Shown: positions 7,149-26,850 of the stretch, piece by piece
Numbering within the stretch: position 1 is the first letter of the stretch
How the letters are laid out: each line of letters opens with the position of its first letter
Assembly: GCF_006874475.1 (NCBI RefSeq)
Contig: NZ_VIRM01000031.1
Span: 1-64,000, forward strand
Direction: 5' to 3'
Source of the DNA: Microbispora hainanensis
GTDB lineage: Bacteria; Actinomycetota; Actinomycetes; Streptosporangiales; Streptosporangiaceae
Length of the DNA: 64,000 nucleotides
The notes under the pieces: model-generated
Told to the model about the DNA's origin: nothing
The model's database searches: none
The model's input: the letters and a program-made list of their open reading frames with translations, nothing else
Program-made: the position numbers and the translations under genes

Positions 7149-7985
7149 TCACGCCGGCTTCTCACCCGCGGAGTCGACGATGCGCCGGGCGAACTCCAGA
7201 CGAGGTCTGTCGATCATCTCTCCGTCGACCCGTACGGCGGCGCCCGCGGACCCGGCCGCCGCGTCGAGCACACGCCGGGCCCAGTTCAGCTCCGCGTCCG
7301 AGGGCGAGAACGCGCCGCGGACGACGGCGACCTGGCGCGGGTGCAGACACAGCTTGCCGGTGAATCCCATGGCCGCCGCCCGGCGGGCGGCCTCCAGGGC
7401 CGCCGCATCGTCGTCGATCTCGGGCTCGACCCCGTCGACGGGCCCGGGCAGCCCGGCGGCCCTGGCCGCGAGCACGACCTTGCTGCGCGCGAACAGCAAC
7501 GCCTGCTCGTCGCCGCCCCGTGAGGGGATGCCCATGTCGAGACAGAAGTCGAGGTTGCCGAACAGGAGCCGCGCCACGCCCGGCGCCTGTGCGATGAGAT
7601 CCGCGTCCCGTACGCCCCGGGCGGATTCGAGCAGCGCGAAGACCGGCACCCGGGGGCCGAGCGCGGCGGCCACCGACGCGACGTGCTCGGCCGCCTCGGT
7701 CTTGGGGAGGACGACTCCGGCGAGCCCTTCGGCCCCGGCGAGCGCGGCCAGGTCGTCGGCGTGCCACGGCGTGCCGATCCCGTTGATCCTCACCAGAGCC
7801 GGGTGGACGGAGACGTGGCCGGCGGCGGCCGCCCGCGCCCGTGCCTTGTCCAGCGGGGCGACGGCGTCCTCGAGGTCGATGACGACCGCGTCCGCGCCGC
7901 TGGCGGCGGCCTTCGCGAAGCGGTCGGGCCGGGTGCCGGGCACGAAGAGCAGGGTCCGCGCCGTCGTCCCGTACGCCCCGGTCAT
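7149..7985 (-). CDS. HpcH/HpaI aldolase/CitE-family acyl-CoA lyase
   Basis: 278 residues, a TIM-barrel lyase of the citramalyl-CoA, malyl-CoA and beta-methylmalyl-CoA lyase group. RTLLFVPGTRPDRF at the N-terminus is the family opening. IDLEDAV follows. The magnesium-binding Glu and Asp lie in FALLESARGV and FGNLDFCLDMG. GKLCLHPRQVAVV is the conserved C-terminal stretch. It splits a hydroxyacyl-CoA into an acyl-CoA and a 2-oxo acid or glyoxylate. The start ATG overlaps the stop of the MaoC gene as ATGA, so the two are translationally coupled. As last gene of the operon it would perform the final cleavage of mesaconyl-CoA breakdown. Substrate specificity is inferred from context. Confidence 0.88.
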   Translation of the reverse strand: MTGAYGTTARTLLFVPGTRPDRFAKAAASGADAVVIDLEDAVAPLDKARARAAAAGHVSVHPALVRINGIGTPWHADDLAALAGAEGLAGVVLPKTEAAEHVASVAAALGPRVPVFALLESARGVRDADLIAQAPGVARLLFGNLDFCLDMGIPSRGGDEQALLFARSKVVLAARAAGLPGPVDGVEPEIDDDAAALEAARRAAAMGFTGKLCLHPRQVAVVRGAFSPSDAELNWARRVLDAAAGSAGAAVRVDGEMIDRPRLEFARRIVDSAGEKPA

Positions 7986-8575
7986 GGTGTGCCGGGACGC
8001 GGGTCGAGCCCGGCGGCCTTCAGAGACCTCTCGTCCCACCGGGGTTCGACGGCGACGCGGCCGGGACCATGACCCCGCCGGTAGACCAGGAGGGTGCGCT
8101 CGAAGCTGATCACGATCACGCCGTCCTGGTTGAACCCGATGGTGCGCACCTCCACCACGCCCACGTCGGGACGGGACTTCGACTCGCGCACCGAGAGCAC
8201 TTCCGACTGGGAGTAGATCGTGTCGCCCTCGAAGACGGGATTGGGCAGGCGCACCCGGTCCCAGCCCAGGTTCGCCATGACGTTCATGGACACGTCGTGC
8301 ACGCTCTGCCCGGTGACCAGGGCCAGGGTGAAGGTCGAGTCGACCAGCGGCCTGCCCCACTGCGTCCGCTCCGCGTAGTGCCGGTCGAAGTGGATGGCCG
8401 CGGTGTTCTGGGTCAGCAGGGTGAGCCACGCGTTGTCCACTTCGGTCACCGTACGGCCGAGCGGGTGCCGGTAGACGTCGCCGACGACGAAGTCCTCCAG
8501 GTAGCGGCCCTCCCAGCTCACTGACGGCGTCCGGGGCTCCGGGGAGGCGGTTGAGGCGGTTCCGTTCTCGTCCAC
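7982..8575 (-). CDS. MaoC-family hydratase, probably mesaconyl-CoA hydratase-like
   Basis: 197 residues from GTG 8575 (AAGGAG eight bases upstream). It has the hot-dog hydratase fold: RYLEDFVVGDVYRHPLGRTV, then TQNTAAIHFDRHYA around the active-site His, then STFTLALVTGQSV and VFEGDTIYSQSEVLSVRESKS. The usual Asp-x-Asn pair of R-hydratases is not kept; the Asp position is Asn, which as I recall is also so in the MaoC relatives found beside CitE-like lyases. The expected role is adding water to mesaconyl-CoA (or an itaconyl-type CoA ester) to make the hydroxyacyl-CoA cleaved by the coupled lyase. A 74-base gap separates it from the deacylase upstream. Confidence 0.82.
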   Translation of the reverse strand: MDENGTASTASPEPRTPSVSWEGRYLEDFVVGDVYRHPLGRTVTEVDNAWLTLLTQNTAAIHFDRHYAERTQWGRPLVDSTFTLALVTGQSVHDVSMNVMANLGWDRVRLPNPVFEGDTIYSQSEVLSVRESKSRPDVGVVEVRTIGFNQDGVIVISFERTLLVYRRGHGPGRVAVEPRWDERSLKAAGLDPRPGTP

Positions 8576-8649
8576 GTCGGGGTCTCCTTGTCGATGGTGT
8601 CGGTACGCCGGTGCCGCCCTCGCCATACCCGGAGCGGCCGAGCCGGTCT

Positions 8650-9570
8650 TCAGTCGCGGGCCAGGCCCATGAGCAGGCCGCCGGCCGAGACCGCCGGGCT
8701 GCTCGTCAGGAACAACGGTGTGCCCGCCTCGGGCGCCCGCACCTCGGCGAAGACCTCGCCCCAGACGTCGCTCATCGTTCCCAGCAGCCCGCCGGCCGGC
8801 ACCTGCTCCCCCACCGCCGCGGCGGGCTCCCACCAGCCCTCCCGGTCGGTGCGCAGCCAGTGCCATCCCTCGTGCAGGCGGGCCTCGCGCACCGGCCACG
8901 GCTCACCGTCGAGCACGCCGACGGTTCTGGCGATGTTGGTCAGCCCGGCCAGGTGGCGGTCGATCGCCGCCCGGTCGAGCAGGCCGTTCTGGCCCGACTC
9001 CGCGACGATCGCCGGGATGCCGGCGTCCGCCGCGGCCGCGCACGTGCTGCCCGCCACGGTCCGCGCCCGCGCGGCCTGCCTGACGACGTGCCCGGCGCCG
9101 TACGCCAGGGCGAGCTCCAGCGAGGCCGCCTCGACCGGCGACTCCTCGAAGATCGTGAACGGCTCCAGCGACTCGGGCAGGTCGCCCGCGTGCATGTCGA
9201 CGAGATAGTCGGAGCCGAGGACGAGCTCGGTGAAGACGTGGTGCGCGAGCACCCGCGTGAACGAGCCGCCCGGGTCGCCGGGGAAGCTCCGGTTCAGGTT
9301 CTCGCCGTCCACCGGGACGACGAACGGCGCCCTGGCCCAGAATCCCGGCACGTTCACCACGGGGACGACGACGATCCGCCCGGAGACGGCGGTGTCGTCG
9401 AGGTTCCGCACGAACTCGCGGACGGCCGCGATCGAGGCGTACTCGGCGCCGTGCACGCCGGACAGCACGGTGAGCCGCGGCCCGCCCCGGCGGCCCCGGA
9501 TGTCGAAGTACGGGATGTCGAGCCCGTCGGGGCCGAGGCCGGGGATGCTGAGAGTCCGCCGCTCGATCAT
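8650..9570 (-). CDS. Succinylglutamate desuccinylase/aspartoacylase-family zinc deacylase
   Basis: 306 residues. The zinc site is clear: SGVHGAEYASIAAV gives the His and Glu, and DYLVDMHAGD gives the second His. NVPGFWARAPFVVPVDGENLNRSFPG is the substrate-binding stretch, in which the Asn and Arg bind the carboxylate in aspartoacylase. The Glu of IVAESGQNG fits the catalytic position. A beta-rich C-terminal domain follows. Relatives remove acyl groups from N-acyl amino acids such as N-acetylaspartate and N-succinylglutamate. The start ATG overlaps the stop of the alpha/beta hydrolase gene (ATGA). In this operon it could release a free amino acid such as an aspartate derivative from an N-acyl precursor. 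Confidence 0.85.
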   Translation of the reverse strand: MIERRTLSIPGLGPDGLDIPYFDIRGRRGGPRLTVLSGVHGAEYASIAAVREFVRNLDDTAVSGRIVVVPVVNVPGFWARAPFVVPVDGENLNRSFPGDPGGSFTRVLAHHVFTELVLGSDYLVDMHAGDLPESLEPFTIFEESPVEAASLELALAYGAGHVVRQAARARTVAGSTCAAAADAGIPAIVAESGQNGLLDRAAIDRHLAGLTNIARTVGVLDGEPWPVREARLHEGWHWLRTDREGWWEPAAAVGEQVPAGGLLGTMSDVWGEVFAEVRAPEAGTPLFLTSSPAVSAGGLLMGLARD

Positions 9571-10424
9571 CGCGCGGCCGTTCCGAGGTCCGGCAGCGCC
9601 TCGGCGAGGAAGTCGCGCATCGTCCGCTGGAAGAGCTCCGCCTCCTCGATCTGCGGGGAGTGCCCGGACTTCTCGAAGACGACCAGCGTGGAGTCCGGGA
9701 TGAGGGAGGCGATCGTCTCCGACGACGACACGGGGGTCACCCAGTCGTGGCGGCCCACGGTGACGAGGGTGGGGCAGGTCACGGACGGAAGCTGCGGCTT
9801 GACGTCGTAGATCGGCGCGTTCTGCTGGAAGCACCAGTTGTGCGCCTCGTGGCGGTAGATGCCGGCCTCGACCCGCGCGGCCGCCTTCGCCGGGTCGTAC
9901 TCGTGGTCGTACAGCGGGATCAGTTCGGCCCAGCGGGCCTTCAGGTCGGCGTCGTCGCGGATATTGCCGCTCCAGTAGCGCTCGTAGTTCTCCCAGTCGA
10001 GCTCCACCCGAGTTTGCTTGCGCGCGTTCTCGTGGGCGAGCTCCAGGTTGGTCCGGTCCGGCGAGGTGTCGCGCAGGATCATCGCCCGCACCCGGTCCGG
10101 GTAGGCGATCGCGTACTCCATGGCGATGAATCCGCCGTAGGAGCCGCCCGCGATCACGATCGTCTCGGCGCCGGCCCACTCGCGAAGCGCGTCGACGTCG
10201 GCGGCCCACTGGGCGTGCGAGTAGGGCGGGACGCCCTCGCTCAGGCCGCAGCCGCGGGCGTCGAACACCACGACGCGGAACAGGTCGGACAGCGGGCCGA
10301 AGGTCGCCTTCGGCTCGGCCAGCGAGCCGATGCCCCCGCCGCCGTGGTGGGCGATCAGCACGGGGGCGCCCTCCTCGCCGAGGACCTCGACGTTGAGCCG
10401 GGCACCGTTGATGGTCACGAACAT
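9567..10424 (-). CDS. Alpha/beta hydrolase, proline iminopeptidase-like
   Basis: 285 residues from ATG 10424 (AAGGAG five bases upstream; the in-frame GTG at 10430 overlaps it). HHGGGGIGSL supplies the oxyanion loop, VVVFDARGCGLSEG is typical of prolyl aminopeptidases, GGSYGGFIAMEYA holds the nucleophile Ser, VGRHDWVTP the acid Asp and SGHSPQIEE the His. The lid is rich in Trp, Tyr and acidic residues. Likely substrates are small peptides or amides. Coupled to the deacylase downstream by ATGA and 36 bases from the DUF885 gene upstream. Confidence 0.85.
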   Translation of the reverse strand: MFVTINGARLNVEVLGEEGAPVLIAHHGGGGIGSLAEPKATFGPLSDLFRVVVFDARGCGLSEGVPPYSHAQWAADVDALREWAGAETIVIAGGSYGGFIAMEYAIAYPDRVRAMILRDTSPDRTNLELAHENARKQTRVELDWENYERYWSGNIRDDADLKARWAELIPLYDHEYDPAKAAARVEAGIYRHEAHNWCFQQNAPIYDVKPQLPSVTCPTLVTVGRHDWVTPVSSSETIASLIPDSTLVVFEKSGHSPQIEEAELFQRTMRDFLAEALPDLGTAAR

Positions 10425-10460
10425 GTGCACTCCTTGCTGAGGAAACGCGGGCGCCCCGGC

Positions 10461-12173
10461 TCAGGCCGCCGCGGAGTCGATCCAGGCGGTCACGATCTGG
10501 TCGAGCACGCCGAGGGGGACGGCGCCGTTGCCGAGCACCGTCCCGTGGAAGGCGCGGATGTCGAACCGGGATCCGAGCCGGGCCTCGGCCACGGCCCGGA
10601 GGCGGCGGATCTCGCGACGGCCGATCATGTACGCCAGCGCCTGCCCGGGCCAGGCGATGTAGCGGTCGATCTCGTTGCGGACGTTGGCCCGCGTCGTCGC
10701 GGTGTTGTCCCACATGAATTCCATGGCCTGCCGCCGCGACCAGCCGAGGTGGTGCATGCCCGTGTCCACCACCAGCCGGCAGGCGCGCAGCGCGTCGAAC
10801 GAGAGCATCCCCAACCGGGCGATGTCGGAGGTGTAGAGGCCCATCTCGTCGGCCAGCCGTTCGCTGTACAGGCCCCAGCCCTCGACGTACCCGCACACCT
10901 CGGCGTCCAGGAAGCGCCGGTACGCCGGAAGGTCCGTCAGGGTCTGCGCGGAGGCGATCTGCAGGTGGTGGCCGGGCGTGCTCTCGTGGAAGGCCAGTGC
11001 CTCGTACTCGTACACGAACCGTTCCTTCGGATCGGCCGTGAGGACGCAGTGGGCGCCGGGCCGGGACCCGTCGCCCGCCGGCGGCCGGTAGTGGGCGAGC
11101 GCGGCGTTGCCCGCCTCGATCGGGTTGATCTCCTCGATGACGCAATCGGCGATGTCGTACGCCGGGAACCAGTCGTCGCGCGCCTCCTCGGCCCGGCGCA
11201 GCGCGTCGGTCACCACGTCGACGATCTCGGCGGCCGAGCCGAACCGCAACGAGGGATCGTCCCGCAGCCGGGCCAGGATCTCGCCCACGTCGCTCGTGCC
11301 GAGCACCCGGCCGCCCAGCTCGGCCCATTCCTGTCGCAGCTCCGCGAGACAGTCGAGGCCGATCTGATGGATCTCCTCGGGAGACAGGTCCGTGGTGGTG
11401 TGGCGCCGCACCGCGGCCCGGTAGCCCTCCTCGCCACCGGGGACGAAGCGGACGCCGACCCGCTCGTCGGGCCGGGCCACGGGCAGCAGCTCGTCCCGGA
11501 GGCCGGCGAGCAGGCGCCGGAGCGCGGGACGGACCGACTCCTCGACGATGCGGGCCGCGCGCGCCCTGACGCTCCCCTCGTCGACGCCGGCCGGCAGCCG
11601 AAGGCCGAGCAGGGTGTCGTCGGCCAGGCTCAGCGAGAGGTGCCTGGTGAGCTGGTCGATGGCCTGGCCGACGCCGACGCGGGTCGGAACGCGCCCGTCC
11701 TCCTTGGCCGCCCGATAACGGTCGAGGATCGCGTCGATGAACGCGGGCAGGGCGCTCAGCCGCCGCAGGTACTGGTCGACGGCCGCGGCGTCGGTGAGGG
11801 ACGCGGCCGGGACCGACATGAACATCATCGCCTGCGGTGAGGAGTAGCCGTCCGCGGACGCCCCCGTCTCCCACAGGCCGTGCTCCAGGTCGGACCGTAC
11901 GCCCCAGGCGAGGCGGCCGAGCACGGCGTGGTTGATCCGGTCGGCCGGGTTCAGGCCGTCCGGGTCGATCTCCGCGAGCCGCCGTTCGATGTCCGCGATC
12001 TTCGCGGCGTCGGCGGCGGCGCCGGAGCGGCTGGGGTCGGGCACCAGCCCGTCGAAGCCCGAGACGCCGAGCAGCGTGGCGCTGAAGGGGTCGGCCGTGT
12101 GCTTCACCTGGAAGAACTCGTCGCTGAGCCGGGCGAGCCGGTCGTTCGCCGGGGGCTGGACTTCAGGAGTCAC
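10461..12173 (-). CDS. DUF885-family putative metallopeptidase
   Basis: 570 residues from GTG 12173 (AGAGG just upstream); an ATG at 12188 in the same frame lacks a ribosome-binding site. The DUF885 zinc motif HESTPGHHLQ is present, followed by EVCGYVEGWGLYSERLADE, RLVVDTGMHHLGWSRRQA and WPGQALAYMIGRREI, the usual order in this family. The protein is largely helical with no signal peptide, so cytoplasmic. Family members are treated as carboxypeptidase-like enzymes but few are characterised. It lies between two dipeptidase genes and an iminopeptidase-like gene, which supports a role in finishing peptide hydrolysis. Confidence 0.88.
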   Translation of the reverse strand: MTPEVQPPANDRLARLSDEFFQVKHTADPFSATLLGVSGFDGLVPDPSRSGAAADAAKIADIERRLAEIDPDGLNPADRINHAVLGRLAWGVRSDLEHGLWETGASADGYSSPQAMMFMSVPAASLTDAAAVDQYLRRLSALPAFIDAILDRYRAAKEDGRVPTRVGVGQAIDQLTRHLSLSLADDTLLGLRLPAGVDEGSVRARAARIVEESVRPALRRLLAGLRDELLPVARPDERVGVRFVPGGEEGYRAAVRRHTTTDLSPEEIHQIGLDCLAELRQEWAELGGRVLGTSDVGEILARLRDDPSLRFGSAAEIVDVVTDALRRAEEARDDWFPAYDIADCVIEEINPIEAGNAALAHYRPPAGDGSRPGAHCVLTADPKERFVYEYEALAFHESTPGHHLQIASAQTLTDLPAYRRFLDAEVCGYVEGWGLYSERLADEMGLYTSDIARLGMLSFDALRACRLVVDTGMHHLGWSRRQAMEFMWDNTATTRANVRNEIDRYIAWPGQALAYMIGRREIRRLRAVAEARLGSRFDIRAFHGTVLGNGAVPLGVLDQIVTAWIDSAAA

Positions 12174-12197
12174 TGATCCTCTTTCCATTCGGGAGGG

Positions 12198-13391
12198 TTA
12201 GGCCCAGATCCGCTCGAGCGCCCGGAGGATGTTGCCGCCGAGCACGGCCGTGATCTCGCTGTCGGAGAACCCTTCCTGGACGAGCAGGCCGCAGATGTTG
12301 TGGAAGTTCTCGGTCGGGTTCTCCAGCCCGTCGACGTACTCCACCTTCTCGAAGGAGGGGCCGCCGGGCGCGGCGGCGCCCACCTTGAGCAGGTGCCCGA
12401 AGACGGTGTGCAGGCCGACGTGGTCGCCATAGAGGGTGTCCGGCCCGAACGCGACGTGCTCGATGCCGACCAGGTCCAGGCAATACCGGAAGTGGTCCAT
12501 CACCGACAGGATCGTGTGCCGGGGATGGGCCTCGGACAGCGTCGTGTGGGGCGCCGCCGACATGCCGATGACGCCGCCGGTCTCGGCGACCGCGCGCAGG
12601 ACGTCGTCCGGCTTCATCCGCGGCGTGTCCCAGACCGCGCGCGCTCCCGCATGGGTCATGAACACCGGGCGCTCGCTCACGGCGCAGACGTCCAGGCCGG
12701 TCCGGTCGGAGGAGTGCGAGATGTCGATGGCCAGGCCGAGCCTGTTCATCCTGGCGACCGCGCGCCTGCCGAAGTCGGTCAGCCCGCCGTCGGTGGTCTC
12801 GTTCAGCCCGCTGCCGAGGGCGTTGGCGTCGGAGTAGGCGATGCCGATCTGCCGGAGGCCGAGGCCGTACAGGACGTCGAGCCGGTCGAGCTCGTTCTCG
12901 ATCGGCGTCGCCGCCTCCAGGCCGAACAGCAGCCCCACCTTGCCCGACCTGTGGGCGTGCTCGATGTCGTCCATCGTCCGGATCACGATCACGCCGGACT
13001 GGTGGGCGATGTCGGCCTGGCGCATGCCGAGGTCGGTGATGATGTCGAGCCAGCGCCACGGGGCGTTGCCGGTGACGCAGGCGGTGCCGTCCATCATGTT
13101 GTCGAACACGACGGTCATGCCCGACGCGAGGAGCCCGGCGAACGCGGTGTGCTGGCGTCCGGTCCTGTTGTATTCCGGCGTCTGCCGCATGTCGGCGGGG
13201 AACCGCACGGGATGGTCGTGCAGGCTGATCACGATGTTGTCCCGCAGCAGCCGCTCGGCCCGTTCCCGCTCCAGCTCGCTCAGGCCGCCGGCGTACGGCG
13301 GCACGCGGCCGAACTCGGGGGCCAGCTCGATGGCCGGGAAGTCGACGCCGGGCGTGAGATAGCCGTACGACTCGTAGACGCCCGCCGTCAC
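12198..13391 (-). CDS. M19 membrane-dipeptidase-family enzyme
   Basis: 397 residues from GTG 13391, which overlaps the preceding stop as GTGA. SLHDHPVRFP carries the His-x-Asp-like metal pair, GLEAATPIE the bridging Glu region, IDISHSSD the next His, VFMTHAGARAV a further His and HVAFGPDTLYGDH the catalytic Asp region. This is the order seen in renal and bacterial M19 dipeptidases, which accept L-D and D-containing dipeptides. No signal peptide, so it acts in the cytoplasm. Being coupled to an M20 dipeptidase suggests sequential use on imported peptides. Confidence 0.85.
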   Translation of the reverse strand: MTAGVYESYGYLTPGVDFPAIELAPEFGRVPPYAGGLSELERERAERLLRDNIVISLHDHPVRFPADMRQTPEYNRTGRQHTAFAGLLASGMTVVFDNMMDGTACVTGNAPWRWLDIITDLGMRQADIAHQSGVIVIRTMDDIEHAHRSGKVGLLFGLEAATPIENELDRLDVLYGLGLRQIGIAYSDANALGSGLNETTDGGLTDFGRRAVARMNRLGLAIDISHSSDRTGLDVCAVSERPVFMTHAGARAVWDTPRMKPDDVLRAVAETGGVIGMSAAPHTTLSEAHPRHTILSVMDHFRYCLDLVGIEHVAFGPDTLYGDHVGLHTVFGHLLKVGAAAPGGPSFEKVEYVDGLENPTENFHNICGLLVQEGFSDSEITAVLGGNILRALERIWA

Positions 13392-14785
13392 CGCGTGCCG
13401 TCCCTGTGCACCGGCGCCAGCCGGTGCGGCCCGTCGGCGAGCAGCCGCCACAGCCGCTCCCAGGCGCGCATCCCCTCGCGCAGCCGGGAGATCCGCATGA
13501 ACTCGTTCGGCGCGTGCAGGTTCTCGTCGGCGGTGGAGAAGGAGAAGAACAGCGTCTTCGCGCCGAGGACCTCCTCGAACAGGGCCGTCGCGGGCAGGGT
13601 CCCCGCGATGACGGCCAGCAGGACGTCCTGGCCCGGGTAGACGTGCGCGAGCGCCTCGGTGGCGGCGCGGATCGCCGGGTGATCGGCGGGGATCGTGTAC
13701 GCGGGCACCCCGCCCTCGTCGGGGCGGACGGCGACGCGTACGCCGGGGATCTTCTGGGCGAGCACATGGTCGGTGATCGCCTGGAGCACCCGCTCCGGGC
13801 GCTGGCCCGGCACGAGCCGGCAGGAGATGTGGGCGGTCGCGACGTGCGGGATCACCGTGTATTTGCCACCGGTCAGGACACCGTTGATCTCCAGGGTGGG
13901 CCGCTCCCACAGCCGCTCCAGCGTGCTGTAGCCGGCCTCGCCGAAGAGGGCGTCGAGACCCAGGTCGTCCCGGTAGCGGTCGTCGTCGAACGGCACCGCC
14001 GCGATGGCGGCGCGGCGCTCGTCGCTCAGCTCGGGGATGCCGTCGTAGAAGCCGTCGACCGCGACCCGGCCGTCGGCCGTGTGCAGGCCGGCCAGGATCT
14101 CGCTCAGGGCGTGCACCGGGTTGGCGACGGTGCCGCCGTAACGCCCGGAGTGCAGGTCGGTGGCGGCGCCGCCGACCTCGACGGTGAGCGTCACCAGGCC
14201 CTTGGACGCGATCGACAGCGAGGGCTCGCTCGGCCGCCACATCGCCCCGTCGGCCGAGATGACCAGGTCGGCCGCGAGCTCGTCCGCGTGCTCGCGCAGG
14301 TAGGCGGGCAGGTGGGGGCTGCCGATCTCCTCCTCTCCTTCGAAGAGGAACTTGACGTTCAGCGGCAGCGCGCCCTCCTGCTCGATGAACGCCTGTGCGA
14401 CCTTGAGCACGATGAAGACCGGGCCCTTGTCGTCGGTGACCCCGCGCCCGCGGATCACGTCGCCGTCGACGCGCAGCTCGAACGGCGGGGTGCGCCACTC
14501 GGCGGGATCGCCGGTCGGCTGCACGTCGTAGTGGCCGTAGACCAGGATGGTGGGGGCGCCGGGCGCCCCGAGCCACTCGCCCCGGACGATGGGGTGACCT
14601 TCCGTGGCGACGACCCGTCCGCCGGCGAAGGACAACTGGGCCGCGAGCCATTCGGCCGCGGTCCGCATGGTCTCCGCGGAGGCGTCCCGGCTCACGCTGG
14701 GCACCGCGACGTACGCGGCGAGCTCGTCGAGGTAGGCGGCGGTCGAATCGAAGTCGGTCGAATCAAAAGAGAGCATGTCCACCAT
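13388..14785 (-). CDS. M20-family dipeptidase
   Basis: 465 residues. YGHYDVQP gives the first metal His and catalytic Asp, RGVTDDKGP the bridging Asp, LFEGEEEIGSP the catalytic Glu-Glu, and FFSFSTADENLHAPNEF the final His. VGGAATDLHSGRYGG marks the dimerisation lid. This is the dipeptidase branch related to carnosinases. Start codons at 14785 and 14776 are both possible; neither has a strong ribosome-binding site and both overlap the end of the SDR gene, so translation is probably coupled. It hydrolyses dipeptides in the cytoplasm. Confidence 0.88.
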   Translation of the reverse strand: MVDMLSFDSTDFDSTAAYLDELAAYVAVPSVSRDASAETMRTAAEWLAAQLSFAGGRVVATEGHPIVRGEWLGAPGAPTILVYGHYDVQPTGDPAEWRTPPFELRVDGDVIRGRGVTDDKGPVFIVLKVAQAFIEQEGALPLNVKFLFEGEEEIGSPHLPAYLREHADELAADLVISADGAMWRPSEPSLSIASKGLVTLTVEVGGAATDLHSGRYGGTVANPVHALSEILAGLHTADGRVAVDGFYDGIPELSDERRAAIAAVPFDDDRYRDDLGLDALFGEAGYSTLERLWERPTLEINGVLTGGKYTVIPHVATAHISCRLVPGQRPERVLQAITDHVLAQKIPGVRVAVRPDEGGVPAYTIPADHPAIRAATEALAHVYPGQDVLLAVIAGTLPATALFEEVLGAKTLFFSFSTADENLHAPNEFMRISRLREGMRAWERLWRLLADGPHRLAPVHRDGTR

Positions 14786-15461
14786 CAATCGAGAGGGTCT
14801 GACCGGTGATCCAGGATGAGGATTCGGAGACGAAGAACCGGACGCCGTGCGCGATGTCCTCCGGCCGGCCGAGCCGGCGTACGGCGATGCCGTCGACGAG
14901 CGCGGCCTGCCCCTGCTCGCCGTAGCTCTCCCACTGCTGGATCGTCGTGGGGTTGGACAGGACGAACCCCGGCGCGATGCAGTTGACCGTGATGCCGAAC
15001 CGTCCTAGCTCGTGCGCCATCTGCCGGGTGAAGCCGATCTGCCCGGCCTTCGCGCTGGCGTAGGCCTGGATGCCGGTCAGGCTGACGCTGCGGCCCGCGC
15101 CCGACGAGATGTTCACGATGCGGCCGGAGCCGCGCCGCTTCATGCCCGGCACCGCCGCCCTGGTGCACAGGAACGTGCTGGTGAGGTTGGCCGCGACCAC
15201 GGCGGACCAGTCCTCGTCGCCGATCTCCTCCAGCGGGTGGTGGACCTGGCCGACCACGCCGCCGGCGTTGTTGACCAGGATGTCGACGTCGCCGATCTCG
15301 GTGAAGAAGGCGTTGACCGCGGACGAGTCGGTGACGTCCACCGTGTCCTTGTCGACGCCGTGCACCCGGACCCCGTCCGCCTCGAGCGCGGCGGCGATGG
15401 CCGCCCCGATCCCGTGGGCCGTGCCGGTGACGACGGCGACCCTGTCCCTGGCTTCCGTCAC
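14763..15461 (-). CDS. Short-chain dehydrogenase/reductase (SDR)
   Basis: 232 residues from GTG 15461, giving a GTGA overlap with the creatininase-family gene; ATG 15473 is an alternative. It is a classical SDR: TGTAHGIG is the cofactor-binding glycine motif, NNAGG follows, Ser lies in VNISSGAG and Tyr/Lys in YASAKAG. The C-terminal SSWITGQTLSIDGG is standard. An Asp after the second strand (HGVDKD) suggests NAD rather than NADP. It could oxidise or reduce a hydroxy or keto intermediate produced by the hydrolases around it; the substrate is not evident. Confidence 0.85.
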   Translation of the reverse strand: MTEARDRVAVVTGTAHGIGAAIAAALEADGVRVHGVDKDTVDVTDSSAVNAFFTEIGDVDILVNNAGGVVGQVHHPLEEIGDEDWSAVVAANLTSTFLCTRAAVPGMKRRGSGRIVNISSGAGRSVSLTGIQAYASAKAGQIGFTRQMAHELGRFGITVNCIAPGFVLSNPTTIQQWESYGEQGQAALVDGIAVRRLGRPEDIAHGVRFFVSESSSWITGQTLSIDGGHALF

Positions 15462-16171: not shown

Positions 16172-16205
16172 CGGTCCTCACACTCCGTTCGATGATGCGA
16201 AGTGA

Positions 16206-17009: not shown

Positions 17010-17023
17010 ACCGGGATCGTGTG

Positions 17024-19546: not shown

Positions 19547-20367
19547 TCGACCAGCCCCCGGCACAGCAGCACGACGGTGATGAACGTCTGGTAGATCCAC
19601 AGCGGGTCGTCTCCGACGATGACCGCCGACAGGTCCCCGGTCCGCTCGACTCCGGCGATCCTGGCGGCCAGCTCGCAGTAGTCGCTGCTGCGGAAGGAGA
19701 TGCCGAGCGTGACCGGCAGCTCGAAGGACGGCGGCGCCGCGCCCGCCAGGTGCTCGACGGCCTCGTGCGCCCGCTCGCGGATCAGGTCCCGCGCGGCCTC
19801 CGGGTGCAACGCCTCGGCGGAGAAGCGGGACACCGACCGCTTGACGACCGCGGCCTTGATCCCCGGGCAGAACCGCTCGGTCTCCTCGGCGGTCGTCGCG
19901 TCACCGGTGACCAGCACGATCGGCACCTGGTGCGCGGCCGCCACGAGCGCGTTGATGCCCGCCTCACCGGCGACGACGCCGTTGATCTTCACCTCGGCGA
20001 ACGCCGACGGGAAGTAGGTGTGCGACAGGACCGAGCCCCTGCTGCCCATCGATCCGTGATAGGAGACCAGGAAGATCGCGTCGAAGGTGGAGTCGAGCCC
20101 CTGCATCATGTACATCGGCTTGTAGCGGCCGGACAGATAGCCGGCGCGTCCGGCGAGCGCGTCCGGTTTCAGGTTCGCCATCTTCGAGTGCGCGTCGTTC
20201 ACCAGGAACTCCGTGGCGCCCGCCCGCATCGCGCCCTCGATGGCGGCGTTGATCTCCCCCGTCAGCAGCTCGGTGTAGTACGGATACTGCGAACCGCCGA
20301 TGACGCACTGGTCCCAGTCCACCACGCCGGCGGTCCCCTCCATGTCGGAGGAGATGAAGATTTTCAC
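19543..20367 (-). CDS. M55-family D-aminopeptidase (DppA type)
   Basis: 274 residues from GTG 20367 (GTGA overlap with the upstream gene). The zinc ligands of Bacillus DppA are present at or near the same numbers: Asp8 and Glu10 in SSDMEGTAG, His60 in LVNDAHSKM, His104 in VSYHGSMG, and a Glu in VVAGEAGINA. LSHTYFPSAF holds the catalytic His region. The family removes N-terminal D-amino acids from short peptides in a decameric ring. Encoding it inside an operon with a peptide importer mirrors the dpp operon of Bacillus and implies peptides with D-residues, such as cell-wall or non-ribosomal peptides. Confidence 0.92.
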   Translation of the reverse strand: MKIFISSDMEGTAGVVDWDQCVIGGSQYPYYTELLTGEINAAIEGAMRAGATEFLVNDAHSKMANLKPDALAGRAGYLSGRYKPMYMMQGLDSTFDAIFLVSYHGSMGSRGSVLSHTYFPSAFAEVKINGVVAGEAGINALVAAAHQVPIVLVTGDATTAEETERFCPGIKAAVVKRSVSRFSAEALHPEAARDLIRERAHEAVEHLAGAAPPSFELPVTLGISFRSSDYCELAARIAGVERTGDLSAVIVGDDPLWIYQTFITVVLLCRGLVE

Positions 20368-21310
20368 GACAGCACGCTCCTCGGGCGGGACTCCGGACCG
20401 GTCGAGCTCTCGGTCATCACCACGTAGTACGAGCCGGCCTGTCCCGCCGCCGCACCGTGCCGGCCGTCCGGCGTGAGGGCGAGACAGCGCAGCTCGGCAC
20501 GGAACTCGTCGGGCAGGGTGGCCGCGTCGGCGAGCATCGCCAGGCACGCCTCCGAGGGGTCGAGCCCGCGCGCGAGGTCCGCGACGATGCCCCGGGCGCC
20601 GAGGACCCGCATGCTCAGCTCTCCCCGGCCGGTGCAGGCGGCCCCTCCGTACCGCGCGTCGGCGTAGTTTCCCGCGCCGGGAACGGCGGAGTCCCCGATA
20701 CGCCCCGGGTATTTCCAGGGGTAGCCGCTGGTGGACACGCCCACGACGAGCTCGCCCGAGGCGTCGAGGGCGATGATGTTGATGGTCCCCCAGGGCCCGT
20801 CGTGCGGGGCGAAGCGGTTGACGAGTTCGAGCGCGGTCCGGCGGTACAGCTCGTCACCGGCCTGCGCCGCGGTCCGCTCGCCTTCGACGGACTCGTCCGA
20901 GGGCTGGAGCGCCGACACGAACAGCTTCTTGGACTCCTCGGTCAGCAGCTCCGCGCGGGCGAATCCGTTCTCCTCGGCGAACAGCTCGGCGCCCTCGCCG
21001 ACGAGGAGGCTGTGCTGCGGCAGCCGCTCCAGGACGGCCCGGGCGATGGAGACGGGGTTGGGAAACCCCTTCACCGCGCCGACGGCGCCGAAGGCCCTGG
21101 TCGAGCCGACCATCACCGACGCGTCGAGCTCCACCACGCCCCGGGCGTTCGGCAGCCCGCCGGTCCCGACGTAGTGGTCGTCCAGGTTGTCCTCGCACCT
21201 GCGCAGACCGGCCTCGACCGCGTCCAGCGCCGAGCCGCCGCGGGCGAGTATCTCCATGGCGGCGGGCAGACCTGCCTCGCTCCGCTCGCTGCCGATGACG
21301 ATCGGACCGC

Positions 21311-21314
<4 letters not shown>
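20364..21314 (-). CDS. Type 2 asparaginase/isoaspartyl-peptidase-like Ntn hydrolase
   Basis: 316 residues from GTG 21314 (GTGA overlap with the ATPase gene). It is synthesised as a precursor and should self-cleave before the Thr of HDGPWGTINIIALD, which becomes the N-terminal nucleophile. SALDAVEAGLRRCEDN and HYVGTGGLPN belong to the alpha chain, and RIGDSAVPGAGNYAD and GAACTGRGE to the beta chain substrate site. The family includes glycosylasparaginase and isoaspartyl peptidase, which act on the side-chain carboxyl of aspartate. That fits an operon ending in aspartate-analogue breakdown. Which of the two activities it has cannot be decided here. Confidence 0.87.
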
Positions 21315-22344
<1,030 letters not shown>

Positions 22345-22348
<4 letters not shown>

Positions 22349-23361
22349 CGCGTGCTCCCCGCTTCCTGCTCGGCCATCGCATTCCACCGCTCCGCCGTGT
22401 CCACGCGCCGGCAGGCGCTCCGTCTCCCCGGTCCGGCGGGCACCGGCTCCGGCTCGCCCTCCCGGCAGGCATCCTCGGCGAACGGGCATCGGGGGGCGAA
22501 GGAGCAGCCGGTCAGAGGCTGAGTAAGGTCCGGCGGCCGGCCGTGGATGGTCAGCAGCCGGGCCACCCGCCGGTCCGGGTCGGGCACCGACCGCAGCAGG
22601 GAGAAGGTGTACGGATGCCGGGGCTCGGTCACCAGATCGACCAGGTCGCCCGACTCGACCACCTTGCCCGCGTACATGACGTACAGCCGCGAGCAGGTCT
22701 GGCTGACCACGGCCAGGTCGTGGCTGACCAGCAGCAGGCTGACGTTCTCCTCCTGCTTGAGCTGCCGCAGGACGCCGAGCACCTGGGCCTGGATCGTCAC
22801 GTCCAGGGCCGTGGTCGGCTCGTCGGCGAGGATGAGCCGGGGCTTGGTCGACAGCGCGATCGCGATGCAGACACGCTGGCGCATCCCGCCGGACAGCTGG
22901 TGCGGATACAGCTCGTAGCGACGCTCGGGATCGGCTATCCCGACCTCTCTCATGAGGTCGACGGCGATCGCCCTGGCCTCGCCGCGCGACTTGCCGAGCC
23001 TGCGCAGGGGCGCCTCGGCGATCTGGTCGCCCACGCGCATGACCGGGTTCAGCGCCGTCAGCGAGTCCTGGAAGATCATGCTCATCGTGTCGGACAGCCG
23101 GCTCCGCAGTTGCTTGGCAGGCAGCCCGGTGACGTCCTCGCCGTCGATGAGGATGGTTCCCGAGACGATCCGCGCCGGGCGGGGCAGCAGCCCGAGCAGC
23201 GCGCGCAGGGTGAGGCTCTTGCCCGAGCCCGACTCGCCGACCAGCCCCACCGACTCGGCCGCGCCCACCGTGAGGGACACGCCGCGGACCGCGTGCAGCC
23301 GCGCGTGCGGCATGGGGATGTCGACGTGCAGGTCGTGCACTTCGAGCAGCGGAGGGGTCAT
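22345..23361 (-). CDS. Peptide ABC importer ATPase (DppD/OppD type)
   Basis: 338 residues with Walker A GESGSGKSLTL, Q-loop FQDSLTALNPVMRV, signature LSGGMRQRV, Walker B LILADEPTTALD and switch His in LVSHDLAVV. The C-terminal peptide-transporter extension GCSFAPRCPFAEDAC is present. ATGA overlap with the permease gene upstream and GTGA overlap with the DppF-type gene downstream. Confidence 0.93.
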
Positions 23362-24221
23362 TGGTTCGCCTTCTCCACGATGCCGTCCGCGATCAGCGCA
23401 AGTGCGAGTCCCGTGACGACGACGGCCAGGCCCGGGATCGTGGACATGTACCACTTGGTCAAGAGGAACTGCTGACCTTCCTGGATCATGGTTCCCCAGT
23501 CGGGGGTCGGCGGCGGCACGCCGAGGCCGAGGAAGCCGAGGGTCACGATCGCCAGCAGGGTGAGCACGATGTCGCTCATCGAGAAGATGATCGCCTGCAG
23601 GACGACGTTCGGCAGCAGGTGCCGGAGCAGGATCCGCCATGTCGGCAGGCCGCTGGCCCGCGCCGCCATGGCGTACTCCTGCTCCTTGGCGACGAGGACC
23701 TGACCGCGGACGATGCGGCAGTACGCCACCCATCCGACCAGGGTCACCGCGACGTAGATGCTGGTCGTCCCCGGCCCCATCGCGAACACCAGCGCGATGA
23801 CCAGGACCAGGAACGGGAACGCGATCACCATGTCCACGATCCGGCCGATGACGGCGTCCACCCATCCGCCGAACCATCCCGCGATCAGCCCGATCAGGCT
23901 GCCGATGATCAGCGGCGAGATGACCGCCACCACGCCGACCCGCAGGTCGACCCGGGCTCCGTAGAGCAGCCGGGCCAGCACGTCGCGCCCGAGCGCGTCG
24001 GTGCCGAGCAGGTGGCCCGGCGCGCCGGGGTCGAGGAATGCGGCCTGGAGGTTCTGCTTGATCGGGTCCTGGCTCGTCAGCAGGGGCGCGCAGAGCGCGA
24101 GGGCGACGATCAGGCCGAACAGGATCAGCCCGGCGACGAGCGGCGCGTTCCACCGCCCACGCCGCCGGCGGCGGCCGGAACCCGCCGGCGCGGCGGGGGC
24201 CGCGGAAGTGATCGCGCTCAT
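23358..24221 (-). CDS. Peptide ABC importer permease (DppC type)
   Basis: 287 residues. A Pro/Ala/Arg-rich N-terminus is followed by a first membrane helix (APLVAGLILFGLIVALAL), the DppC marker GTDALGRDVLARLLYGARV, and five more helices. The EAA loop that contacts the ATPase is AARASGLPTWRILLRHLLPN. It pairs with the DppB-type permease. ATGA overlaps on both sides. Confidence 0.92.
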   Translation of the reverse strand: MSAITSAAPAAPAGSGRRRRRGRWNAPLVAGLILFGLIVALALCAPLLTSQDPIKQNLQAAFLDPGAPGHLLGTDALGRDVLARLLYGARVDLRVGVVAVISPLIIGSLIGLIAGWFGGWVDAVIGRIVDMVIAFPFLVLVIALVFAMGPGTTSIYVAVTLVGWVAYCRIVRGQVLVAKEQEYAMAARASGLPTWRILLRHLLPNVVLQAIIFSMSDIVLTLLAIVTLGFLGLGVPPPTPDWGTMIQEGQQFLLTKWYMSTIPGLAVVVTGLALALIADGIVEKANQ

Positions 24222-25159
24222 GCGAGCTGAACCCGGGGATCGAGGGCGGAGTGGGCCACGTCGGTCAACAGGTTCACGACCACGACCATGATCGCGAAGA
24301 CCAGAGTGATTCCCTGCACGGTGGGGAAGTCCCTTCCGAAGATGGAATTGATCATCTGCTGCCCGATGCCGGGGAGCGAGAAGACCCGTTCGACCACCAG
24401 CGTCGATCCCGTGAGATAGGCGATGTTGACGCCCAGGACGGTGACGGACGAGACGGCGGCGTTGCGCAGGGCGTGTCCGAGCACCACCCTCGCGGTGCTG
24501 ATCCCCTTGCTGTGCGCCGTCACGATGTAGTCGCTGCTCAGCACCTCGATCATGCTGGCGCGCAGGCTGCGGATCACGATCGGCGCGAGCGTCAGGGCGA
24601 CCGTGATGCCGGGCAGCACGATGCCGCGCACGTGTTCGGCCAGGCTCTGGCCGTATCCCCCGACCGGGAACCAGCCCAGCTTCAGCCCGAAGACCACGAT
24701 GAGCGCGATGCCCAGCAGGAACGCCGGCAGCCCCAGGCCCACGACCGGCACCGCCCGGATGATGTTGTCGGCGATCCCGTTGCGCCGCGCCGCGGCCAGG
24801 ACGGCCAGCGGCACGGCGATCAGCAGCGTGAAGAAGGTGCCCGAGACCAGCAGCCAGATCGTCACCGGCAGGCTGGTCGCGATCAGCCCGAGGACCGAGC
24901 TGTTGTACACGTAGGAGAATCCGAGGTTGCCCTGCAGCAGGTGGCCCAGGAACGTCAGATACTGGCTCAGCAGTGGCTTCTCGAGCCCCATCTGGTCGCG
25001 CAGTTCCTTGACCGCCTGCGGCGTGGCGTGCACCCCGAGCAGGGTCGCCGCCGGGTCTCCCGGGATCAGCCGGATCAGGAAGAAGACGATGAACGAGATC
25101 CCGAGCAGCACCGGGATCAGCGACACCACCCGTTTCAGGATGTAGACGACATATCTCAT
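24218..25159 (-). CDS. Peptide ABC importer permease (DppB type)
   Basis: 313 residues with the DppB opening YILKRVVSLIPVLLGISFIV, the RLIPGDPA motif after helix 1, and five further helices. The cytoplasmic EAA loop is TAHSKGISTARVVLGHALRN. It follows the binding-protein gene by 41 bases and overlaps the DppC-type gene. Confidence 0.92.
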   Translation of the reverse strand: MRYVVYILKRVVSLIPVLLGISFIVFFLIRLIPGDPAATLLGVHATPQAVKELRDQMGLEKPLLSQYLTFLGHLLQGNLGFSYVYNSSVLGLIATSLPVTIWLLVSGTFFTLLIAVPLAVLAAARRNGIADNIIRAVPVVGLGLPAFLLGIALIVVFGLKLGWFPVGGYGQSLAEHVRGIVLPGITVALTLAPIVIRSLRASMIEVLSSDYIVTAHSKGISTARVVLGHALRNAAVSSVTVLGVNIAYLTGSTLVVERVFSLPGIGQQMINSIFGRDFPTVQGITLVFAIMVVVVNLLTDVAHSALDPRVQLA

Positions 25160-25200
25160 CGTTGCTCTCGCTCCAGGTTCTCAGTCCGCATCGGCCCGGC

Positions 25201-26850
25201 TCAGAGCGAGACGTCTTCCATGTGGTACGACCCGGTCGGCAGCACCTTGAAGCCCTGCACGCTGCTCGCCGTCGCGTACGGGAAGGGCGTGTAGAACAGG
25301 AACGCGAGGAACGCGGATTCGGCGGCCTTCTGCTGGAGCTCGCTGTACAGGGCCTGGCGCTTGGTCTTGTCGAACTCCTTCTGCGCCTTGTGGACCAGAT
25401 CGATGAGCTCCGGGTCGTCGAAGCCGGTGTCGAAGGAGTGCCCGCCGGACGTGGGATCGAGTGCGAACTGCGCCAGCTCGTCGGGGTCGGCCAGGTCCAT
25501 CGTCCAGTAGGAGTGCGCGATCTCGTAGTCCAGCTTGCCGGTCATGTCGTGCTGCGCGCTCGGGTCCACGTTCTGGATGTTCATCGTGATGCCCAGCTCC
25601 TTCAGCGACTCCTGCAGGACCTGCGCGATCGCCGCGTCCACCGCGTCGCCCGACATGGCGAGCCACGTCGTGGTGAAGCCGTTCGGCACGCTCGACTGGG
25701 CCATCTCCTCCTTGGCCTTGTTCATGTCGTACTGGATGCCGGGGCAGTTCTTGTCGTAGAACGGCGTGGACGGCATCAGGAACGAGTTCGCCGGGGTGCC
25801 GTTGCCGAACAGGATGGTCTTGATCAGCGCCTCCCGGTCGATGGCATACGAGATGGCGCGGCGCACATGAACGTCGTCGTACGGCTTCTTGTGCTGGTTC
25901 ATCATGATGTAGTCCGTCCGGGTGGACGGGAACAGGTCGACCTTCACGTTGGGCGTGTTCTTGAGCTGGTCGAGGCTGGAGAACGGCGGGCTCTCGTTGA
26001 TGTGCGCCTGCCCGCCCTGCAGCTGGATCGCGCGGGCGTTGCTGTCCGCGACCACCTTCCAGGTGACCGAGTCGAGGTACGGCTTGCCCGCCTGCCAGTA
26101 GGAGGGGTTCTTCTTCAGCGTGAGGGCACTGCCCTTCTGCCAGGTGCCCCACACGAACGGGCCGGTCCCGATCGGGCTGGCGTAGAACTCGTCCTTGCTC
26201 TTGCCCGCGTAGTCCTTGGGGATGATCCCGTTGTTCGGGCAGCTCAGGTCGGCGAGCAGCGGCGCCCACGGATACTTGGTGGTCACCACGACGGTGTAGT
26301 CGTCCGGCGTGGTCACCTCCTTGATCGCGGAGTTGATGAACTCCCAGCCGCCCTTGGTCTTGCTCGACTCGTCGATGGAGAACTTCACGTCCGCCGAGGT
26401 CATCGGCTGGCCGTTGTGGAACTTGACGTCCTTCCTGAGCTTCAGGGTGCACGACTTGTTGTCGGGCGACATCTCGTAGCTCTCCGCGAGCCAGGGCCTC
26501 ACCCCCTGGCCGTCGTCCGTCATGGCCACCAGCGGCTCGTAGATCTGCGCGTAGGTCCAGATCGAGGCGTTGCTGAACACCATCGTCTTGTCCATGTTGA
26601 CCGCGTCGTGGTCGCGGACGATGACCAGGTCGCCGCCCTTCTTGGCCGCGCCGGACGCGGCGCCGGACGAGGCGCCGGTGGAGGTGTCCGACGACGATCC
26701 GCAGGCTGCCAGCAACGGCGCGGACGCGAACGCCCCGAGGCCGAGCGCGCCGAGGTAGAGCATCCGGCGCCGGCTGATATCAGGTCCCCTGAGGCCGGCG
26801 AATATCTGCGAGGCCGATGGGATCGATGCGTCAGTGCTGTGGTCAGACAT
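25201..26850 (-). CDS. Peptide ABC importer solute-binding lipoprotein (family 5), Tat-exported
   Basis: 549 residues. The N-terminus has a twin-arginine signal (ISRRRMLYLGALG) and a lipobox ending at Cys50 (PLLAAC), so the folded protein is probably exported by Tat and anchored in the outer leaflet. A Ser/Ala linker follows. The body is the DppA/OppA type: LAESYEMSPDNKS, KDVKFHNGQPMTSADVKFSI, IGTGPFVWG and AISYAIDREALI. First gene of the leftward importer operon. Ligand not predictable; context suggests peptides or amides. Confidence 0.92.
   Translation of the reverse strand: MSDHSTDASIPSASQIFAGLRGPDISRRRMLYLGALGLGAFASAPLLAACGSSSDTSTGASSGAASGAAKKGGDLVIVRDHDAVNMDKTMVFSNASIWTYAQIYEPLVAMTDDGQGVRPWLAESYEMSPDNKSCTLKLRKDVKFHNGQPMTSADVKFSIDESSKTKGGWEFINSAIKEVTTPDDYTVVVTTKYPWAPLLADLSCPNNGIIPKDYAGKSKDEFYASPIGTGPFVWGTWQKGSALTLKKNPSYWQAGKPYLDSVTWKVVADSNARAIQLQGGQAHINESPPFSSLDQLKNTPNVKVDLFPSTRTDYIMMNQHKKPYDDVHVRRAISYAIDREALIKTILFGNGTPANSFLMPSTPFYDKNCPGIQYDMNKAKEEMAQSSVPNGFTTTWLAMSGDAVDAAIAQVLQESLKELGITMNIQNVDPSAQHDMTGKLDYEIAHSYWTMDLADPDELAQFALDPTSGGHSFDTGFDDPELIDLVHKAQKEFDKTKRQALYSELQQKAAESAFLAFLFYTPFPYATASSVQGFKVLPTGSYHMEDVSL

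What the first reader, a model, noticed from the sequence alone, without database searches (positions are those of the whole stretch)
7149..26850. Two operons together encode a full 3-methylaspartate to mesaconyl-CoA breakdown route joined to a peptide importer
Operon at 17097-26850 has methylaspartate ammonia-lyase and a class III CoA-transferase sharing one base. Operon at 7149-16171 has a MaoC hydratase coupled to an HpcH/CitE lyase. In order these give methylaspartate, mesaconate, mesaconyl-CoA, a methylmalyl- or citramalyl-CoA, then propionyl-CoA plus glyoxylate or acetyl-CoA plus pyruvate. Established: the same four enzyme types act in the haloarchaeal methylaspartate cycle. Here they are tied to peptide import and not to glutamate mutase, which is absent. 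I infer a catabolic route for a peptide or amide that yields methylaspartate. I do not know of a described system of this form in actinomycetes.
Basis: partly seen in the sequence, partly recalled or inferred. Interest (0 to 1): 0.88.

Follow-up and report, generated by a model that had tools for sequence, protein, structure and literature searches.

The report
Mutase-free 3-methylaspartate catabolic island
A soil actinomycete carries a conserved gene island that probably imports unusual peptides, cuts them with a suite of hydrolases and breaks the odd amino acid 3-methylaspartate down to ordinary metabolites, using a branch of the key ammonia-lyase with one altered substrate-contact residue.

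Summary
Window 7149-29275 (Microbispora) encodes methylaspartate ammonia-lyase (MAL), a class III CoA-transferase, a MaoC hydratase, an HpcH/CitE lyase and an OppABCDF importer; no glutamate mutase E chain is found in the genome. Ten further proteins lie there: M55 D-aminopeptidase, glycosylasparaginase-like, M19, M20, DUF885, creatininase, AstE/AspA, alpha/beta-hydrolase, SDR, ApbA-amidase. Relatives support one pathway: 24 of 43 related loci have the CoA-transferase within the fetched stretch, 7 of 43 all four enzymes, and MaoC sits beside the CoA-transferase in other genera. MaoC and lyase score best against the itaconate enzymes RipB/RipC (below cut-off), so acetyl-CoA plus pyruvate is likelier than propionyl-CoA plus glyoxylate. 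New here: this MAL clade (44 of 44) has His where 37 of 37 loci of the anaerobe group and 11 of 11 fetched plasmid MALs have Gln329, a C4-carboxylate ligand. One of 43 clade genomes has a strong mutase match, against 3 of 3 controls. The reaction types are known. Mutase-free MAL-transferase-lyase clusters also lie on rhizobial plasmids, mostly with a fumarase-type hydratase. Substrate and imported peptide are inferred, not shown.

The parts
7149..7985 (-). HpcH/CitE-type CoA-ester lyase (RipC/citramalyl-CoA-lyase-like)
   Evidence: PF03328 E 7e-39; NCBIfam best RipC_Ccl 158 bits, cut-off 375; nearest PDB 9nzb/8khl, named acyl-CoA lyase beta chain; start ATG 7985
7982..8521 (-). single-domain MaoC hydratase (RipB/Ich-like)
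   Evidence: PF19315, PF01575; NCBIfam best RipB_Ich 219 bits, cut-off 340; nearest PDB beta-methylmalyl-CoA dehydratase 8hgn; start GTG inferred
8650..9570 (-). AstE/AspA-type deacylase (DoeB-like)
   Evidence: PF24827; TIGR02994 82 bits, cut-off 403; PDB 3cdx, 6twl
9567..10430 (-). alpha/beta hydrolase, iminopeptidase/enol-lactonase type
   Evidence: PF00561; NCBIfam, no match over cut-off
10461..12188 (-). DUF885 putative metallopeptidase
   Evidence: PF05960 E 1e-150; PDB 3o0y, 3iuk, uncharacterised
12198..13250 (-). M19 (renal-type) dipeptidase
   Evidence: PF01244; PDB amidohydrolase/dipeptidases
13388..14788 (-). M20 dipeptidase (start uncertain)
   Evidence: PF01546; NF006053 455 bits, over cut-off 441
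14763..15461 (-). short-chain dehydrogenase
   Evidence: PF13561
15458..16171 (-). creatininase-family amidohydrolase
   Evidence: PF02633; TIGR04448 80 bits, cut-off 235
16424..16993 (+). Lrp/AsnC regulator, divergent from the 7149-16171 operon (start inferred)
   Evidence: PF13404, PF01037; sequence
17097..18290 (-). class III CoA-transferase
   Evidence: PF02515 E 1e-122; best NCBIfam succinate-glutarate 247/750 and succinyl-CoA:mesaconate CoA-transferase 233/700 bits, both under cut-off
18290..19546 (-). methylaspartate ammonia-lyase with His at the Gln329 position
   Evidence: TIGR01502 536 bits over cut-off 286; PDB 1kcz E 3e-149; residues
19543..20400 (-). M55 D-aminopeptidase (DppA-like; start approximate)
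   Evidence: PF04951; PDB 1hi9 DppA E 1e-36; NF058634 186 bits, cut-off 430
20364..21314 (-). Ntn-hydrolase, glycosylasparaginase/isoaspartyl-peptidase-like
   Evidence: PF01112; PDB 1p4k E 2e-39, beta-subunit matches begin at residue 177
21311..26850 (-). OppF, OppD, OppC, OppB, OppA importer
   Evidence: PF00005+PF08352, PF00528, PF00496
27131..29275 (+). ApbA/ketopantoate-reductase-like plus amidase in one ORF, divergent from oppA
   Evidence: PF02558, PF01425; next to the cluster in relatives

Best explanation
The island is an inducible catabolic unit for an amide- or peptide-bound 3-methylaspartate. OppABCDF imports the oligopeptide. Peptidases and amidases suited to D-, iso- and dipeptide bonds (M55, glycosylasparaginase-like Ntn-hydrolase, M19, M20, DUF885, creatininase, AspA-like, amidase) release the free amino acid, while the SDR and ApbA-like enzyme oxidise or reduce a companion group. 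MAL removes ammonia to give mesaconate. The class III CoA-transferase makes mesaconyl-CoA, most likely the C4 ester, from succinyl-CoA. The RipB-like MaoC hydrates it to (S)-citramalyl-CoA, and the RipC-like lyase yields acetyl-CoA and pyruvate. The Lrp/AsnC protein is the likely switch. Shown: genes, overlaps, conservation, absence of mutase E. Inferred: every substrate, the C4 route, the peptide source, the regulation.
For: MAL is a full-length member; H194, K331, D238, E273, D307 and methyl-pocket L384 are kept in 44 of 44 clade members; roles from PMC7241714 passages. CoA-transferase in the fetched stretch (up to 10 kb each side) of 24 of 43 related loci and 0 of 37 loci of the anaerobe group; MaoC in 12 of 43 against 0 of 37; all four in 7 of 43. 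Within the genus MAL, operon-1 M19 and HpcH occur in the same 6 of 15 genomes (two of the six are identical at these genes, and linkage alone would give this). MaoC lies beside the CoA-transferase in Planotetraspora, Streptosporangium and Nonomuraea and in the HpcH operon in Microbispora. At least 3 of 6 peptidase families in 20 of 43 loci; none of the six in 37 of 37 loci of the anaerobe group. Glutamate mutase E: strong match in 1 of 43 clade genomes, weak partial ones in 2 more, 3 of 3 controls positive.
Against: Gln329, a contact of the substrate C4 carboxylate, is His in the whole clade, so the substrate may differ. HpcH, MaoC and CoA-transferase score below the curated NCBIfam cut-offs. 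19 of 43 loci show no CoA-transferase of at least 50% identity in the fetched stretch (L016, L022, L030 and L042 have a 32-33% homologue); 6 of those 19 genomes have a close one elsewhere and 13 do not at E 1e-90 (many are MAGs and flanks are often cut). HpcH near MAL is not clade-specific: 11 of 43 against 18 of 37, the latter probably citramalate-lyase CitE. In a second context MAL sits with SDRs, an isochorismatase-type amidase and a PuuE-like hydrolase instead of peptidases, so a peptide is not the only source. One of nine MAL-less congeners, G004, has a CoA-transferase (72%) near a MaoC (61%), and 6 of the 9 have a MaoC homologue of 46-61%. G015 has the operon-1 peptidases but no full-length MAL. 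No transcription or enzyme data.
Confidence: 0.6

Rival explanations
1. The His329 clade of MAL is a different ammonia-lyase. It deaminates another diacid amino acid (other C3 stereochemistry, another C3 substituent, or an N-substituted form), and the CoA-transferase, MaoC and lyase handle the matching substituted fumarate.
For: Position 329 is the only column that is invariant in both groups with different letters (44 of 44 His, 37 of 37 Gln); Gln too in all 11 plasmid-borne MALs fetched (17 records were listed). It contacts the C4 carboxylate in the reference structure (PMC7241714 passages). Hydrolase and oxidoreductase partners differ between contexts.
Against: Methyl-pocket Leu384 (44 of 44) and Tyr356 (42 of 44), and the C1-carboxylate contacts Thr/Ser360 (44 of 44) and Cys361 (43 of 44), are kept. 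His can still donate a hydrogen bond. The downstream set fits mesaconate.
Confidence: 0.22
2. The two operons are separate pathways that happen to be neighbours: peptide scavenging plus MAL and CoA-transferase in one, an itaconate- or methylsuccinate-type MaoC-lyase pair in the other.
For: MaoC and lyase look like RipB/RipC of itaconate degradation. Linkage alone explains the shared presence in 6 of 15 congeners. In G036 the HpcH lies with a second MaoC on another contig than MAL.
Against: Four enzymes together in 7 of 43 loci, from Microbacteriaceae, Pseudonocardiaceae and Acidimicrobiales among others; MaoC beside CoA-transferase in other genera; MaoC relatives of at least 69% identity in 19 of 43 clade genomes and 0 of 9 MAL-less congeners. 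Both arms carry peptidases that reassort together.
Confidence: 0.1
3. The MAL runs in the amination direction to make methylaspartate for a natural product.
For: MALs are reversible enzymes (established, recalled). Actinomycetes do make methylaspartate-derived products (PMC11284099 passages).
Against: No PKS or NRPS family was met among the 40 window ORFs scanned (not every ORF of the window). In four of seven glutamate mutase E loci of relatives the mutase lies near PKS or adenylation genes, so there methylaspartate for products comes from the mutase. An importer and many hydrolases argue for catabolism.
Confidence: 0.04

Closest known systems
Haloarchaeal methylaspartate cycle (PMC5592240, passages read)
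   Same: MAL, class III mesaconate CoA-transferase, MaoC-family mesaconyl-CoA hydratase, CoA-ester lyase
   Different: There glutamate mutase feeds MAL, the hydratase has two domains, the C1 ester is used, and the products are propionyl-CoA and glyoxylate for acetate assimilation. Here: no mutase E, a one-domain RipB-like MaoC, peptidases and an importer, His at 329 (Gln in the one haloarchaeal MAL fetched).
Itaconate/methylsuccinate degradation (Ict/RipA, Ich/RipB, Ccl/RipC; PMC12290011, passages read)
   Same: The hydratase and lyase are nearest to RipB and RipC; mesaconyl-C4-CoA to citramalyl-CoA to acetyl-CoA plus pyruvate
   Different: There the entry is itaconate or methylsuccinate; here a MAL supplies mesaconate. 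Best hits are below equivalog cut-offs.
Methylaspartate pathway of glutamate fermentation (PMC4682846, passages read)
   Same: MAL producing mesaconate
   Different: There: glutamate mutase and mesaconase (class I fumarase), with citramalate lyase in clostridia; also in some enterobacteria. The 37 loci of the anaerobe group have Gln329. Here mesaconate is probably activated before hydration.
Rhizobial and Gemmobacter plasmid clusters MAL, CaiB/BaiF CoA-transferase, CoA-ester lyase, fumarate hydratase (annotations)
   Same: MAL next to a class III CoA-transferase and a lyase in aerobes; four of these seven records (L148, L151, L152, L153) have no mutase E match
   Different: A fumarase-type hydratase and no MaoC listed (none listed either in L151); MAL has Gln329; MAL 42-51% and CoA-transferase 31-33% identical; no comparable peptidase suite in the stretches.

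Membership tests
Methylaspartate ammonia-lyase (EC 4.3.1.2) | Full-length MAAL_N and MAAL_C domains, score over the curated cut-off | tested here: met
Methylaspartate ammonia-lyase (EC 4.3.1.2) | Residues D238/E273/D307 (metal ligands, role recalled), catalytic K331 and H194 | tested here: met
   44 of 44
Methylaspartate ammonia-lyase (EC 4.3.1.2) | Gln329 contact to the C4 carboxylate | tested here: not met
   His in 44 of 44 clade members; may be a substitution within the family or a specificity change
Methylaspartate ammonia-lyase (EC 4.3.1.2) | Activity on 3-methylaspartate | not testable with these tools
   Needs an assay
Haloarchaeal methylaspartate cycle | Glutamate mutase present | tested here: not met
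   E chain: own genome 0 matches; clade genomes 1 of 43 with a strong match, 2 more weak. The S chain was not searched.
Haloarchaeal methylaspartate cycle | Two-domain mesaconyl-CoA hydratase | tested here: not met
   179-aa single-domain protein; NF041625 69 bits, cut-off 560
RipB/RipC itaconate module | Equivalog scores of hydratase and lyase | tested here: not met
   Best hits but below cut-off: 219/340 and 158/375
Mesaconate CoA-transferase (Mct) | Equivalog score NF041294 | tested here: not met
   233 bits against 700

The most novel reading that the evidence does not exclude
The His329 MALs define an aerobic, glutamate-mutase-free pathway, found mainly in actinobacteria with a few MAGs of other phyla, for eating beta-methylaspartyl natural products such as nonribosomal peptides with D- or iso-linked methylaspartate. 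The bacteria that make methylaspartate (glutamate mutase inside biosynthetic clusters) and those that eat it (His329 MAL islands) would be largely separate neighbours in soil and water.
Probability: 0.2. Interest if true: 0.8.

Novelty: new variant of a known kind. Interest (0 to 1): 0.55.

Why it matters
In the papers seen, 3-methylaspartate is an intermediate of glutamate fermentation and of the haloarchaeal cycle, or a natural-product building block. A conserved island that appears to take it from outside, without glutamate mutase, would show that it is a nutrient in its own right. It would give a marker residue (His329) for that use, and hydrolases likely to open peptides with D-, iso- or cyclic bonds. 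It also makes an open question testable: what, in the environment, releases methylaspartate.

Tried and rejected
CAAX protease-like gene at 6150-7103 as part of the island: rejected. It gave no hit beside HpcH in 4 of 4 congener loci searched, and DNA homology ends at 7135-7152.

His329 as a mark of decoupling from glutamate mutase in general: rejected. Rhizobial MALs on records without a mutase E match keep Gln.

Producer/consumer split as a statistical claim: not supported. Strong glutamate mutase E matches in 6 of 60 relatives, none of them among the 7 with a full-length His329 MAL, but chance alone predicts under one overlap; one of the 7 (G002) has a weak partial match just over the cut-off (27.4 bits). 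In one search, 1 of 43 clade genomes has both. Of seven mutase loci looked at, PKS or adenylation genes were confirmed by Pfam in four: L138, L139, L140, L144.

Microcystin as the specific substrate: considered from recall (iso-linked D-methylaspartate, D-residues); no test of it was run. Context B (SDRs, isochorismatase-type amidase, PuuE-like, GS-like) was annotated in part but gave no substrate; a literature search for amide/imide intermediates listed nothing relevant. Inverted repeats near the regulator and promoters were short and led nowhere. No MAL relative in the phage collection. No structure prediction was run.

Identity thresholds were chosen by me per family; one search excludes the window and loci from then on in number (L081 and up), and its counts include loci with short flanks (21 of 43 and 17 of 37 have at least 19 kb). 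The tree used 15 of the 37 anaerobe-group rows. Of 17 plasmid records with a MAL I fetched 11.
Full report
What is there. The window lies in an 8.7 Mb genome (G000). The nearest named relative by MAL is Microbispora bryophytorum, 93%. From 7149 to 29275 there is one island: a minus-strand operon 7149-16171 (creatininase, SDR, M20, M19, DUF885, alpha/beta hydrolase, AspA-like, MaoC, HpcH), a divergent Lrp/AsnC gene, a second minus-strand operon 17097-26850 (OppA, B, C, D, F, glycosylasparaginase-like, M55, MAL, CoA-transferase) and a divergent ApbA-amidase ORF. The junctions at M55/MAL, MAL/CoA-transferase, MaoC/HpcH and creatininase/SDR overlap.

Is it more than chance? In the genus (15 genomes with our own), MAL, the operon-1 M19 (at least 95% identity) and HpcH (at least 82%) occur in the same six genomes and are absent, at these levels, from the other nine. 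G011 is identical to our genome at these genes, so these are about five independent cases, and linkage alone would produce the pattern. The lower edge is sharp: DNA homology with four congeners stops at the HpcH stop codon and the CAAX gene beyond it is not shared. In the same family, G036 has the MAL island with a MaoC beside the CoA-transferase, but its HpcH (53-56%) and a second MaoC are on another contig. G015 has the operon-1 peptidases (82-92%) without a full-length MAL.

Relatives. Of 80 loci fetched with the MAL, 43 form one group with the window: mostly actinobacteria, plus MAGs labelled Dormibacterota (4), Acidobacteria (1) and Gammaproteobacteria (1). The other 37 have titles such as Clostridia, Tissierellia, Fusobacterium, Prevotella and Treponema; I call them the anaerobe group from those names. 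A 59-row tree separates 44 rows (window plus 43) from 15 of the anaerobe-group rows with 100/100 support. In the 43 loci the CoA-transferase is present in 24, MaoC in 12, an HpcH in 11, all four in 7; at least three of six peptidase families in 20. In the 37 loci: CoA-transferase 0, MaoC 0, peptidase families 0, HpcH 18. Flanks are often cut, so these are lower bounds. Of the 19 clade genomes without a close CoA-transferase in the locus, 6 have one elsewhere (59-88% identity) and 13 do not at E 1e-90; one MAL-less congener of nine, G004, has one at 72%. MaoC of at least 69% identity is in 19 of 43 clade genomes and 0 of 9 MAL-less congeners, though 6 of these 9 have a homologue of 46-61%.

Two contexts. 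Context A is the peptidase and Opp set of the window, reshuffled in Pseudonocardiales, Microbacteriaceae and uncultured actinobacterial MAGs. Context B has MAL and CoA-transferase with SDRs, an isochorismatase-family amidase, a PuuE-like hydrolase, a GS-like ligase (in varying sets) and amino-acid or branched-chain-type importers. One locus, L027, mixes both. The labels A and B intermix on the tree. I read this as one downstream module fed by different upstream modules.

The ammonia-lyase. It passes the equivalog cut-off and matches the C. tetanomorphum structure end to end. D238, E273, D307, His194, Lys331, Gln73, Gln172 and Leu384 are invariant in 44 of 44; Tyr356 in 42, Cys361 in 43; residue 360 is T in 37 and S in 7; residue 170 is F in 31, Y in 11, H in 2. 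Position 329 is His in 44 of 44 and Gln in 37 of 37; the only other column separating the groups at 93% is 306, beside metal ligand 307. All 11 plasmid-borne MALs that I fetched, from rhizobia, Microvirga, Gemmobacter and a haloarchaeon, have Gln329. In PMC7241714 (passages read) Gln329 lies 3.08 A from the substrate C4 carboxylate and helps hold the enolate intermediate, while F170, Y356 and L384 form the methyl pocket. So the methyl pocket is largely kept and one carboxylate contact is changed.

No glutamate mutase. PF06368 gives 0 matches in the own genome. In the 43 clade genomes one has a strong match (Nonomuraea jiangxiensis, E 3e-86) and two have weak partial ones under the cut-off, which I count as absent; 3 of 3 anaerobe-group controls are positive. 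The Nonomuraea copy sits near PKS genes and a VinK-type acyltransferase. Among 60 relatives, 6 have a strong mutase match and none of these has a full-length MAL; G002, which has MAL, has a weak partial match just over the cut-off. The numbers are too small to call this avoidance.

Route after mesaconate. MaoC and HpcH are closest to RipB/Ich and RipC/Ccl of itaconate degradation, below the curated cut-offs. PMC12290011 (passages) describes mesaconyl-C4-CoA to citramalyl-CoA to acetyl-CoA plus pyruvate in that module. PMC5592240 (passages) states that mesaconate CoA-transferase was known only from the haloarchaeal cycle and that the actinobacteria with a two-domain hydratase lack MAL and mutase. 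I therefore favour the citramalyl-CoA route over the glyoxylate route, at about two to one (judgement).

Known or new. Searches of the paper library (titles and abstract beginnings seen) listed no paper on such an actinomycete cluster; subscription journals and preprints are largely outside that library. The enzyme reactions are known. Rhizobial plasmids carry a parallel MAL, CoA-transferase, lyase and (in most annotated records) fumarase cluster, in part without a mutase E match on the record. Hence: new variant of a known kind, with a clade-specific active-site change and a distinctive hydrolase suite. The open question is the substrate.

Noticed in passing
L148, L151, L152, L153 (rhizobial plasmids): MAL, CoA-transferase and CoA-ester lyase, in three of the four with fumarate hydratase, SSADH, Lrp and an aminotransferase, and with no glutamate mutase E match on the record; L148 also has genes annotated as an ectoine/hydroxyectoine importer. 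An unexplained mutase-free MAL cluster in symbionts.
   Followed up: partly
L149:8001-9269 (Rhizobium sp. 007 plasmid): A MAL annotated as such but with V73, L170, T172, F356, Y361 and V384 at pocket positions, near an opine-dehydrogenase-family gene and an Opp-like importer: probably a different enzyme.
   Followed up: no
L014, L023, L034, L037, L044, L055: Context B: MAL with SDRs, and in varying sets an isochorismatase-type amidase, a PuuE-like (allantoinase/imidase type) hydrolase, GS-like and class II amidotransferase genes; its substrate is unknown.
   Followed up: partly
G004 contig C21, about 41.8-51.7 kb: CoA-transferase (72%), MaoC (61%) and an HpcH hit (41%, one internal TGA) close together in a congener without a full-length MAL, as if the downstream module exists alone.
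   Followed up: no
window 47538-56143 +: A second M20 peptidase and an SBP_bac_5 solute-binding protein, beginning about 18 kb beyond the island.
   Followed up: no
L118 (G015 contig C126): The operon-1 peptidase set (82-92% identity) on a contig that ends at the Lrp gene, in a same-family genome in which no full-length MAL was found.
   Followed up: partly
L138, L139, L140, L144: Glutamate mutase E in these actinobacteria lies near PKS or adenylation genes and, in two, a VinK-like acyltransferase: probably biosynthetic, not catabolic.
   Followed up: yes
L125 / G038 contig C89: A Gln329-type MAL that matches in pieces in three frames, in a genome of the same order, without a glutamate mutase E match.
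   Followed up: no
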